Source of the DNA: Manduca sexta
Lineage: Eukaryota; Arthropoda; Insecta; Lepidoptera; Sphingidae
Length of the DNA stretch: 64,000 nt
NCBI RefSeq assembly: GCF_014839805.1
Contig: NC_051120.1
Span: forward strand, 3,348,001 to 3,412,000
Reading direction: 5' to 3'
Part shown: piece by piece, positions 1,504 to 5,460 of the stretch
How the letters are laid out: each line of letters opens with the position of its first letter
Position numbering within the stretch: position 1 is the first letter of the stretch
The notes under the pieces: generated by a model
Told to the model about the DNA's origin: nothing
Seen by the model: the letters and a program-made list of their open reading frames with translations, nothing else
Databases searched by the model: none
Program-made: the position numbers and the translations under genes

Positions 1504-1508
1504 CGTCG
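1504..1508. repeat. Left 5-bp target-site duplication of Transib element
   Basis: CGTCG directly outside the left CACAGTG terminus, matched by CGTCG directly outside the right terminus at 3430-3434. Five-base, GC-rich duplications close to CGNCG are a known hallmark of the Transib superfamily. Confidence 0.85.
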
Positions 1509-1548
1509 CACAGTGATTCGTCTAGAACAAATTAGCTGGACAAAAACA
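1509..1548 (+). repeat. Left Transib terminus with RSS-like heptamer/nonamer
   Basis: CACAGTG at 1509-1515, then a 24-bp spacer (1516-1539), then ACAAAAACA at 1540-1548. The heptamer is identical to the V(D)J recombination signal heptamer, and the block at 1540 differs from the consensus nonamer ACAAAAACC at one base. The spacing is close to the 23-bp class. The TIR identity with the right end stops at 1545. Confidence 0.8.
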
Positions 1549-1903
1549 TTTGAGTGCGTATTTTGGTTGTTTTGGCTACAGACAGTAATATTTTAAAGGG
1601 GAAATGTGTTTTAAATGCTTCAAAAGTAATAATAATTACAAAACACACAAATTAAAATCGATGAAAAATTTTAATATAAAAGTGGCACCTTAGGAATTAT
1701 ATTATAATTTAATAATAAAACATAAAATAAAAGCAAAATACGTACATAGCACAAATTAGCATAGAAATAAAAATATATATTTTTTTAATAAATAATAATA
1801 ACATTAATAACATTTGAAATTCTCTACTTATAGCTAAATTAATTTCACCTATACACAAATTTAAAGTGTTAAAAGCAAAATAATTAAATAAATAAATCTA
1901 ATC

Positions 1904-2899
1904 CTAACCAGATGAGTCATCACTTTCACAATCAGACGAGTCAGGTGCCAAATAATCATCAACGTCACATGGCGTTAGACTATTTGATGCCCGAGGTATG
2001 GGTATTGAAGGCGGGACTACCAAATTCAGCACTTCTGATGGTAATGACTCTTTTTTCTTTTTAGGTAGTTCTCTGAGTGAATTAATTACAGGATCTGATG
2101 TTATTAAAAGCATATTCAGTAAATCTGTATTCGTGGTAATACGCGACTGTTTCCGTGTATGAAGTTCCCGGAATCTACGGCAGTCTTTATTTCGAGCCTC
2201 TTGAGCTTCCTCGGATAGTTGCCCAATAGGCACAATACAATACTTAATAACCTCCGTACTATGCACAAGAATTTTTCAATGACAGTTTTCGCGTTTGTTT
2301 GTAAGAATGACTGGTACATTTCGAATCTACATAGTAAGCTAATGCTTCGTCACTATTCAGTTGTCTACCACCGCACGTTTTTTCACTTGTTTCAATTCTG
2401 TCAGAGGATTGGCTACTCTTTCCGATCCTAGAAGCTATTTTTCTCTGACCTGCCATACGGTTTGCAACTTCCGCAGCTATGGTCAATTCTCCTGCACTGC
2501 GTGTTTGCACCAATTCTTCAACTTTGCGCTTTTTTGTTTTGTAACACGAGTCGTCGAAATCTTTTTTGGGTCGACCTTGAAGCCGACTCCCTTTTGATGA
2601 CGTGGATGGGCAAGGTCGATCCACACATATGGTAAAACTCATGTTGCCTCCTTCTAACCTCTTTTTATTAATATTTAAAAAGCGATCTAATAACATATTC
2701 GATGCCGCCCATTTTCCGGTTAATTTTGAATATATACTGGATATTTTCTGTTTAATGGCCCTCAACGAGTCACTAGTGATATCACTAACAGCAAATTTAT
2801 TATTTATATATTCCAATAAACGAACATTCCGTTCTTCTTTGGCATGTTTTCGCCATTCTTCAAAAAACTCAATTTTCGAAATGGGGAAGACACGTTCTG
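1904..2899 (-). pseudogene. Transib transposase remnant: N-terminal part plus catalytic-Glu C-terminus
   Basis: Minus strand. From about 2899 to 2259 a frame is open, preceded by an acceptor-like TTTTTCAG|AA. It reads ERVFPISKIEFFEEW, then a basic stretch GRPKKDFDD...KTKKRKVEEL and ends in LNSDEALAYYVDSK and a stop. This matches the N-terminal region of Transib-type transposases as I know it. A second frame, 2266-1904, contains VPIGQLSEEAQEARNKD, then RELHTRK, a LLITSDP motif and an acidic serine-rich tail. This is the C-terminal end that carries the third catalytic residue (Glu) and aligns by motif with the RAG1 segment around E962. The middle of the protein, including the two catalytic Asp residues and the NDGNTARR-type block, is absent, and the two pieces are in different frames. 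It is therefore an internal-deletion remnant with no transposase activity expected. Use of a non-ATG codon as start should be ignored; no initiating exon was found upstream. Confidence 0.75.
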
Positions 2900-3389
2900 A
2901 AAAATGAAATAAAACCAGTTAGTGGTGGAATGTGGTACCAAATTTGATCTCGTTTAAAAGGTGAATATTAGTACTATATACTGTAAAAAATTTAGACTGG
3001 ATACAATTGGATACAAAAAGATGCATACGATTAAAATATGGAAACTTGATAAAAAAAAAATATTTTTCAATACTATATTCCAAGCCATATTGGGCCAAAC
3101 CTACTCATATTAGAATCTTATGGGTGGTAAAATATGAAAATACATTCCCTCAACAGTAGAATCCATCACAAAAATCACGGTAATATATCACACAAATTAA
3201 AGGAGATGCTATCGAAAGCACTGCAAAAATGCAACTACTCCAATTACATTAATGCAACTATTACATTACCTACCTGCGACAGTTAATTACACATCCCTGT
3301 GGAATGTTTTTCACCCTTTCTACCTGTTTTCGTGACCTTGGGGATGTTGTTTACAACATGTGGTCACTAATTAGTAGATTCTTGGAAGT

Positions 3390-3429
3390 GACTTTTGTCC
3401 AGCTAATTTGTTCTAGACGAATCACTGTG
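3390..3429 (-). repeat. Right Transib terminus with RSS-like heptamer
   Basis: Reverse complement of the left TIR over 37 bp (3393-3429). Read inward on the minus strand it begins CACAGTG, has the same 24-bp spacer, and then ACAAAAGTC, a weaker nonamer match (first six bases). Both ends have the same spacing, as expected for a transposon rather than a 12/23 pair. Confidence 0.8.
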
Positions 3430-3434
3430 CGTCG
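3430..3434. repeat. Right 5-bp target-site duplication of Transib element
   Basis: CGTCG, a direct copy of the 5 bp at 1504-1508, so the insertion boundaries can be set to the base. Confidence 0.85.
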
Positions 3435-5460
3435 GTAGGACGTTTGTGTTAAATGACGTAATGTTTTCATGTTTTCCTCGCGCATCATCATTAAGGTTTA
3501 TTTTTCTCTGCTATAATGGAGCAATAATGTTTACTTTATCATTTCTATGTCATATTGTAACTCTTTAAACATTATTAAGAAATTATATGTATCTTAATGT
3601 ATTAATTATAGTATTTAATTTTGATATGTAACGGTGGCCCTTGCAATTGTCAACAAAGGAGCCAAGTATAATGATGTACACTTATTTAGCTGTTTCGTAT
3701 CTTGTAATCAAGTAAATTGTAGAAAGAAGGAGAAGCGAATTGATCTACATACAACTTATTAATCGAAATTGAGAACGATTGTTTCGAACAAAAATTGAAA
3801 TTACAATGAAATCAATGAATAAATGATTTCGTAAGTCTGCACTCTTAGTTTTCTTCAAGAAAAAAAAATGGGACCCATGGTATTTGATGAAGTATTCTTT
3901 TTTAAGTGTCGTATGATACATCGAACTTACGATATACTGTCTTCGAGTAGATAATTGTCTAGTTGATGTACAGGAAACGGTCCCACACGAGACGTTTAAC
4001 TGTAATGTATGTGTAAAACACGTTGCTGTTATGTTGCCGTTTGGAAAACCATTGTTCTGATGTAACACTCGTATCGAAGCACGTCTTTTGTGAACTTGAA
4101 GATATGTCAGTTACAATGAATAAACCTGTTTCTTTGCACTCCGACGCTGCGTGCCATTGTTGACTTGTTACTAGTTTTGTACTTTCTGGGTAATTTAGTT
4201 ACAGAAAATTGTAAATTATCTTGAAAAAATAATAAACTTTAATATATTTAAAATAAAATAATATCTTTTTTGATTCTCAGCTCAATACTCTCAGTAATTA
4301 TTGCCTCTATCAGATAAGAAGCTGTTTCATTAACTCAATAAAAACCCTTATATCCTCCTGGTGTATAACTGTCATTGGAAAAAGATTACTAAAATGGTGC
4401 TAAAACAGGGACCCGTATCGTTGAATGCACTTCCATTAATTAACTATCCACACATTTATCCGATATCCAGCCTTGACCCCATGCGTAGGCGCAGCCGTTC
4501 GCACGGTATTTCGTGTAATTTCTGTTGAACTTAAGTTATACGAATAATATTATTTAAGCTAATTCATGTTTAATGTTTTAGTTGTAGTGTTACGTTAAAT
4601 TATGTAATAGTATATATTTATACATAATAGCTTAAATTGGAGTGAAAGGCTTGGAACATGGTGTATTAGTGTATCAATTACTTAAATGTGTTCATTATTG
4701 TTTACGTTTACAGTATGTGAAATATGAGTTATGTGAAAAATTCTTGGTTATTTAGCAGTACTATGTTATATAATAAGTGAATTTGATCGACTATAGTGTT
4801 GTCTTAAAGATGAATTTACTGCTTTTTCAATATTTACCTATAAAGTCGCCGATTTCAAAACATTATCATGTCATATTTAATACAAAATATATGACTGAAA
4901 TACAGTTTACAAAACAAATGCCTTTTACCTTAGGGATAGTCACATTTTTTTAATAAGGATGGTATTACATACCTCATTTATAATATAAAATATTTCTGAA
5001 TAAATAATTTATTGCCTGTTCATTCCGTATGAGTACTAAAGAGACTTCCTAGAAATTAGCCTTACTTGGACTTCACGTTAAGTACGTGAAAACACTCCTA
5101 CGTACTTACGAATTAATATTAATAGCCATTGTTGAGTTTTACGGACTTTGGACTCCATCGACCTCTAACTTTGTAACTTACACATTTACATTATTCAGTA
5201 GTACCATGAATTTTAATACTCTATAGATTGATGTCCGCTTTTTTTTGTTAAAAGTATATGTTGAAGAATTATAGTGATTTTATTAATATAAACATTATTC
5301 ATTGATTAGTATTTTGAAGCTATAACAGTGTATGCTTTTAAAGGTGTTGTTTGGGTTTATAAATATTTGATATCCAAGTAAATGAAATGTTTATGCGAAA
5401 GTCACACATTTTTTTGTTTTATAAAATTGTATAATTGTAAATTGTAGTTAGATATTGTAA
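3435..5460. other. Unassigned AT-rich DNA
   Basis: No repeat end, exon-like block or convincing frame was found. A minus-strand frame of 107 codons at 3745-4068 has low-complexity, cysteine- and histidine-scattered content and no recognisable motif; it is treated as chance. Confidence 0.5.

What the first reader, a model, noticed from the sequence alone, without database searches (positions are those of the whole stretch)
1504..3434. Transib transposon with V(D)J-signal-like ends and a CGTCG target duplication
Seen directly: perfect 37-bp inverted repeats, both starting CACAGTG; CGTCG on both sides; 24 bp inward an ACAAAAACA (left) or ACAAAAGTC (right) block. Known: the RSS is CACAGTG, 12/23-bp spacer, ACAAAAACC; Transib elements are the proposed source of RAG1 and have 5-bp CGNCG-like target duplications and CACWRTG-type ends. 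A terminus matching the full heptamer and 8 of 9 nonamer bases at near-23 spacing is unusually RSS-like. Inference: this family may be informative on how RAG substrates arose, and the perfect TIRs suggest recent movement.
Basis: partly seen in the sequence, partly recalled or inferred. Interest (0 to 1): 0.85.

Follow-up and report, generated by a model that had tools for sequence, protein, structure and literature searches.

The report
Broken Transib transposon in hornworm moth
This is a shortened, non-self-sufficient copy of a RAG1-related 'Transib' jumping gene in the tobacco hornworm moth, whose ends resemble the signals cut by our antibody-gene recombinase; elements of this kind are already known, although this family's ends are more signal-like than those of the other Transib families looked at in the same genome.

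The parts
1504..1508 (.). left target-site duplication CGTCG
   Evidence: read directly; repeated exactly at 3430-3434
1509..1545 (+). left terminal inverted repeat, 37 bp, begins with heptamer CACAGTG
   Evidence: perfect inverted copy at 3393-3429 and ends of three further copies in the genome
1540..1548 (+). nonamer-like block ACAAAAACA, 24 bp from the heptamer, 8 of 9 to ACAAAAACC
   Evidence: present in 4 of 4 copies
1904..2266 (-). C-terminal transposase fragment (120 aa) with SEEAQEARNK; catalytic Glu codon at 2198-2200
   Evidence: HzTransib 6pqn, E 7.3e-19; Glu aligns with chain index 419 = residue 436 (offset of 17; E436 catalytic per PMC6941560 passages)
2274..2275 (.). internal deletion joint: most of the catalytic core missing (about 1.09 kb that the C3527 copy has)
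   Evidence: copy C3527 carries about 1.09 kb more here; short A-run shared at the joint
2259..2816 (-). N-terminal transposase reading frame (185 aa from the listed start; the frame is open upstream to about 2918)
   Evidence: relatives P0001-P0006 and P0129 ff.
2409..2579 (-). nonamer-binding-domain-like region (residues 80-136), GRPKK at 2562-2576
3390..3398 (-). right nonamer-like block ACAAAAGTC, 7 of 9, spacer 24
3393..3429 (-). right terminal inverted repeat, 37 bp
3430..3434 (.). right target-site duplication CGTCG

Best explanation
The feature is a non-autonomous copy of a low-copy Transib family in Manduca sexta. It is a cut-and-paste DNA transposon of the superfamily that gave rise to RAG1. 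Shown: ends, target duplication, homology to HzTransib, loss of most of the catalytic core, three sister copies. Inferred: it was inserted by a Transib transposase, its own before the deletion or one supplied in trans by a fuller copy. That enzyme cuts next to CAC at each end and joins the element to a CG-rich target with a 5-bp stagger. The core was lost in a deletion with a short shared A-run at the joint. With all four copies found in this assembly defective, it is now probably immobile unless a related transposase is supplied. The family's transposase carries a RAG1-NBD-like region, which may contact the A-rich block 24 bp inside each end (inferred, untested).
For: C-terminal frame matches HzTransib, E 7.3e-19, including the catalytic Glu. 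Three further copies share both ends; 3 of 4 copies have perfect 5-bp duplications: CGTCG, CGATG, CGCAT. Copy C3527 holds the missing core, with 3 stops, and matches relative P0002 at 72% over residues 2-312; P0002 matches HzTransib at 1.3e-50 and RAG1 chains at 6.5e-6 and weaker. A profile of the window frame and 71 relatives matches HzTransib at 3.7e-217, RAG1L at 9.1e-14 and RAG1 at 5.9e-12 in the core. Eight further Transib copies of three other families in the genome have 5-bp duplications, 7 of 8 perfect and 6 of 8 of the form CGNCG (the end pairs were picked partly by that agreement). Host: an ORF of the same genome is 99% identical to Manduca protein O3G_MSEX009874, and G000 size and contig number fit JHU_Msex_v1.0.
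Against: The fourth copy (C4) has flanks CGACG and CGCTG, which agree at only 3 of 5 bases. No empty site was found in this genome and no other strain could be searched. Pfam named no Transib family for the window ORFs. The NBD-like fold match has no significant Foldseek E-value (best 0.76), and the profile search reached RAG1 only in the core, not in its NBD.
Confidence: 0.95

Rival explanations
1. The ends work as bipartite RSS-like signals: the core reads CACAGTG and the NBD-like domain reads the ACAAAA block at 24 bp, as RAG1 does with a 23-RSS.
For: Block present at both ends of 4 of 4 copies: 8/9 at four left-type ends, 7/9 at three and 6/9 (spacer 23) at one right-type end. Chance of 8/9 at 22-24 about 0.0011 per end, 0.0047 for either end at any of six spacings. 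NBD-like fold aligned to RAG1 389-456. GRP motif in 27 of 35 readable blocks among 124 proteins of the P0002 searches and in 7 of 50 readable blocks among 120 of the family D search (motif patterns of my own); families D, C and B of this genome, whose N-termini read SRKSF, PRKPF and PPKEF, have no nonamer-like block.
Against: Four copies are identical by descent, so conservation has no power. The model of non-GRP family D also has three helices at the same place, and several RAG1 rows there begin at residue 385-408, so the fold does not discriminate. Only one GRP family could be checked for ends. No sequence-level match to the RAG1 NBD. ProtoRAG works with a quite different distal element (PMC8289069 passages).
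Confidence: 0.25
2. The nonamer-like block is a coincidence in an A-rich subterminal region; only the outer 15-20 bp matter.
For: Best matches at the six spacings tested are 5/9 (D), 4/9 (B) and 3/9 (C) in other Transib families that evidently transposed. PMC8289069 states that most Transib families have symmetric TIRs, such as those of Hztransib, with little or no nonamer similarity (passages). The block straddles the inner end of the repeat.
Against: Chance about 0.001-0.005, although the feature was picked after the fact; the 7/9 match at the same spacer on the other end is not independent, because the repeat shares 6 of the 9 bases.
Confidence: 0.6
3. The shortened copy persists as a repressor: it encodes a catalysis-free DNA-binding fragment, like the KP derivative of the P element (recalled).
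For: Window and C8 copies lost the core by different deletions, yet both keep an open N-terminal frame.
Against: Window versus C8 in this frame (214 codons): 14 of 17 changes nonsynonymous (82%), against 79% expected without selection, so no sign of purifying selection.
Confidence: 0.04
4. A different superfamily with look-alike ends.
For: None found.
Against: Protein match, duplications and sister copies.
Confidence: 0.01

Closest known systems
HzTransib (Helicoverpa zea, PDB 6pqn and others)
   Same: Same transposase family: C-terminal fragment E 7.3e-19, catalytic Glu retained; long TIRs and a 5-bp GC-rich duplication, GCTCG (PMC1852546 passages).
   Different: The solved chain starts after the NBD-like region: chain index 1 aligns with residue 190 of the 708-aa Manduca family D protein, and index 10 with residue 191 of P0129. 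Its TIRs are reported to have little or no nonamer similarity (PMC8289069 passages). The window copy lacks the first two catalytic Asp.
Transib2, N1, N2, N3 (Anopheles) and Transib5 (Drosophila) with RSS-like ends
   Same: Heptamer plus nonamer-like block at 12 or 23 +/-1 bp (PMC8355894, legend and section 6).
   Different: Those are 12/23-type asymmetric; this one is symmetric 24/24. Their sequences were not compared here (Kapitonov and Jurka 2005 not held).
Transib families B, C and D in the same genome
   Same: CAC ends (required by the search; CACAGTG in B and C), mostly CGNCG duplications.
   Different: No nonamer-like block, longer repeats (51-509 bp by the scoring), no GRP motif before the NBD-like helices.
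RAGL / ProtoRAG transposons
   Same: RAG1-like core, CAC ends, 5-bp duplications (PMC7204232 passages).
   Different: No second gene resembling RAG2L was noticed among the frames read, though no RAG2 model was run; distal end element differs (PMC8289069 passages).

Membership tests
Transib superfamily | transposase homologous to HzTransib / RAG1 core | tested here: met
   for the window fragment (7.3e-19); for the core in copy C3527 and relatives
Transib superfamily | terminal inverted repeats starting with CAC heptamer | tested here: met
   CACAGTG at 8 of 8 ends
Transib superfamily | 5-bp, GC-rich target-site duplication | tested here: met
   perfect in 3 of 4 copies; C4 agrees at 3 of 5 bases
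Transib superfamily | only a transposase gene, no RAG2-like gene | tested here: inconclusive
   frames of 60 aa or more in the 4 family copies were read by eye: Transib pieces, short frames and a piggyBac-like frame in C4; no RAG2 model was run
Autonomous Transib | intact DDE triad | tested here: not met
   window copy keeps only the Glu; C3527 reads V at the D126 position and has stops; C4 and C8 are interrupted or deleted there. Hence filed as non-autonomous
V(D)J recombination signal (23-RSS) | heptamer CACAGTG | tested here: met
V(D)J recombination signal (23-RSS) | nonamer ACAAAAACC after 23 bp | tested here: not met
   5/9 and 4/9 at 23; 8/9 and 7/9 at 24
V(D)J recombination signal (23-RSS) | 12/23 asymmetry of the pair | tested here: not met
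   24/24 symmetric
RAG1 nonamer-binding domain | GRP AT-hook-like motif followed by three helices | tested here: met
   GRPKK at residues 81-85 of the window frame; helices 92-105, 108-121, 125-139 in the model (mean pLDDT 83.4, pTM 0.39)
RAG1 nonamer-binding domain | fold or sequence match to RAG1 NBD | tested here: inconclusive
RAG1 nonamer-binding domain | binds the nonamer | not testable with these tools
   needs a binding assay

The most novel reading that the evidence does not exclude
The GRP-bearing Transib lineage keeps a working bipartite recognition system: a RAG1-type NBD that reads an A-rich nonamer-like block about 24 bp inside each end. The sister families without GRP lost both halves. 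If so, heptamer-plus-nonamer recognition would predate RAG1/RAG2, and living insects would hold its symmetric form.
Probability: 0.15. Interest if true: 0.7.

Novelty: new member of a known kind. Interest (0 to 1): 0.33.

Why it matters
By itself it is one more decayed Transib. Its use is comparative. In one genome, four Transib families can be set side by side, and the one with a GRP-type NBD motif is also the one with an RSS-like nonamer block. The solved HzTransib chain lacks the NBD-like region, so those structures do not test whether Transibs use it. A census of GRP motif against nonamer-like block across insect Transibs would test whether nonamer recognition is ancestral.

Tried and rejected
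Other copies by looser ends: a 20-mer with up to 3 mismatches gave 18 places, 8 of them the known ends (0 mismatches) and 10 at 3 mismatches, against 7 reversed-control places (5 forward, 2 reverse), so no MITE derivatives are claimed. Two C7 places 79-80% alike over about 350 bp (L012, L013) are remnants; the best end match there was 20-21 of 37, so no end was found.

Empty site: flanks joined through one CGTCG found only the window's own two halves. Relatives in viral contigs and genome contigs: 31 and 38 pattern stretches, none confirmed; the 20-mer end in viral contigs gave 0.

Repressor idea: rejected for lack of selection. Pfam on the window ORFs: one sub-threshold match, TscT, E 0.029, below its cut-off; relatives P0002, P0005 and P0009 match the Pfam RAG1 model below its cut-off (21.7, 15.9 and 19.5 against 25 bits), P0006 and P0129 do not. 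The profile of window frame plus relatives reached RAG1 only in the core, not in the NBD. RSS pattern in the window: with a 24-bp spacer and up to 3 mismatches, 3 matches against 0.78 expected, 9 of 100 shuffles reaching 3; so only the 1- and 2-mismatch hits at the element ends are notable; the 23-bp pattern gave one 3-mismatch match against 0.59 expected.

Other Transib ends: one search gave 34 matching stretches, family A copies included. Ends were sought in 19 loci and accepted in 8 (L040, L052-L058); 11 of the 19 loci, L040 among them, held only about 1.5 kb each side of the match. In the other 11 loci there was no pair, or only a weak pair or one without a duplication. The search demanded CAC ends and its ranking rewarded a shared 5-bp flank; in L054 I took the third-ranked, outermost pair. 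CAC and duplication counts in families B-D are therefore not independent tests.

Dating: no rate was applied; only raw counts are given. GRP counts: a looser landmark count gave 10 of 15 and 4 of 48; one search is the one used. Both look only at the 120 best listed of 272 and of 553, plus P0001, P0003, P0004 and P0008 (P0002, P0005 and P0006 recur's list). Recalled, from no call: Kapitonov and Jurka 2005 details and the KP repressor.

Full report
What is there. The element occupies 1509-3429 of the window and is flanked by CGTCG on both sides. Its 37-bp inverted repeats are identical and begin CACAGTG. The first 22 bases occur nowhere else in the window within 3 mismatches, and the 37-mer, within 3 mismatches, occurs eight times in the 470-Mb assembly, as both ends of four copies.

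Host. The window is G000:C6:3348001-3412000 of a 470,002,661-base assembly in 4056 contigs. A Transib frame from another contig of that genome is 99% identical to a Manduca sexta protein, O3G_MSEX009874. The JHU_Msex_v1.0 assembly has 470,051,811 bases in 4,057 scaffolds (PMC8022704, passages seen). I take the genome to be Manduca sexta.

Protein. The frame 2266-1904 (minus) matches HzTransib, PDB 6pqn, at E 7.3e-19. The Glu in SEEAQEARNK falls on chain index 419. Searches give an offset of 17 to residue numbers, hence E436, the catalytic Glu named in PMC6941560 (passages). The frame upstream (2816-2259) is the N-terminal part. Between them, at about 2274/2275, the window copy lacks roughly 1.09 kb that copy C3527 has. 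The joint shows a short shared A-run. The regions of D126 and D225 are therefore absent from the window copy. A profile of the N-terminal frame and 71 relatives matches HzTransib (3.7e-217), RAG1L (9.1e-14) and RAG1 (5.9e-12), the RAG matches lying in the core.

Sister copies. C3527: 3247 bp, duplication CGATG on both sides, core present but with three stops in the matched stretch and with V where relative P0002 and HzTransib have the first catalytic Asp, plus a foldback insertion near one end. C8: 2159 bp, duplication CGCAT on both sides, core lost by a different deletion. C4: 6504 bp, interrupted by a piggyBac-like element (PF13843, E 5.5e-63) and another insert; its flanks are CGACG and CGCTG and agree at 3 of 5 bases. 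No intact copy was seen. Pairwise differences to the window copy are 2.0% (C8, 39 of 1914), 2.4% (C3527, 45 of 1856) and 3.0% (C4, 58 of 1908). The window copy has 16 private differences among 1844 columns shared by all four. Perfect repeats therefore say little about very recent movement.

Comparison inside the genome. A protein search with relative P0002 gave 34 matching stretches. Ends were sought in 19 loci and accepted in eight copies of three other families. Families: B, five copies, beginning CACAGTGGACGG; C, two copies, CACAGTGGATCG at three of the four ends and CACAGTGGACCG at the other; D, one copy, CACGCTGGTCC. Seven of these eight have perfect 5-bp duplications, six of the form CGNCG and one AGACG; the eighth has CGCCG and CGCTG. 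The search required CAC ends and favoured shared flanks, so only the further agreement (CACAGTG, CGNCG) is informative. Heptamer and target preference are thus ordinary here. The best nonamer matches at spacers 11-13 and 22-24 are 4/9 (B), 3/9 (C) and 5/9 (D). In the window's family they are 8/9 at the left-type end of all four copies, and 7/9 at the right-type end in three and 6/9 (spacer 23) in one. With a first-order random model of the subterminal DNA, 8/9 at 22-24 has probability 0.0011 per end, and 0.0047 for either end at any of six spacings. The feature was chosen after being seen, so these values flatter it.

Reading. It is a Transib, non-autonomous, low-copy and decayed. RSS-like Transib ends are in print: symmetric ones with 20-22 bp spacers and asymmetric ones with 12 or 23 +/-1 (PMC8355894, legend and section 6). 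PMC8289069 notes that most Transib families have symmetric TIRs, such as those of Hztransib, with heptamer but little or no nonamer similarity (passages). The window's family is on the RSS-like side of that range, with a symmetric 24/24 layout. Whether the block is read by the NBD-like domain is open. One family is not a correlation, and the copies are identical by descent.

Literature search on the host: 'Transib' with 'Manduca sexta' lists 5 papers; in the one opened, PMC8730325, the single passage reports CMC-Transib expression in muscle. I did not open that listing's other four.

Noticed in passing
L052:801-5362 (G000:C9:7160800-7165361): Family D Transib with 442-bp repeats (436 identical), CGCCG duplication on both sides and an uninterrupted 580-aa frame whose 708-aa database counterpart (P0009) is annotated in Manduca sexta.
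   Followed up: partly
L010, nested insert of about 2.5 kb inside the C4 copy (element nt about 2260-4833): A piggyBac-like element with TTAA at both flanks and a 392-aa DDE_Tnp_1_7 frame has jumped into the C4 Transib copy.
   Followed up: partly
L009 (copy C3527), about 297 bp near the 3' end of the gene: A foldback insertion with 57-bp perfect inverted arms is present in this copy and not in the other three.
   Followed up: no
L012 and L013 (G000:C7, about 118.5 kb and 206 kb): Two stretches that share flanking frames carry remnants, 79-80% alike, of an older relative of the window's Transib; they look like a segmental duplication.
   Followed up: partly
PDB 6pqn chain versus P0009 and P0129: The solved HzTransib chain lacks the roughly 190 N-terminal residues, with an NBD-like region, that longer insect relatives have.
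   Followed up: partly
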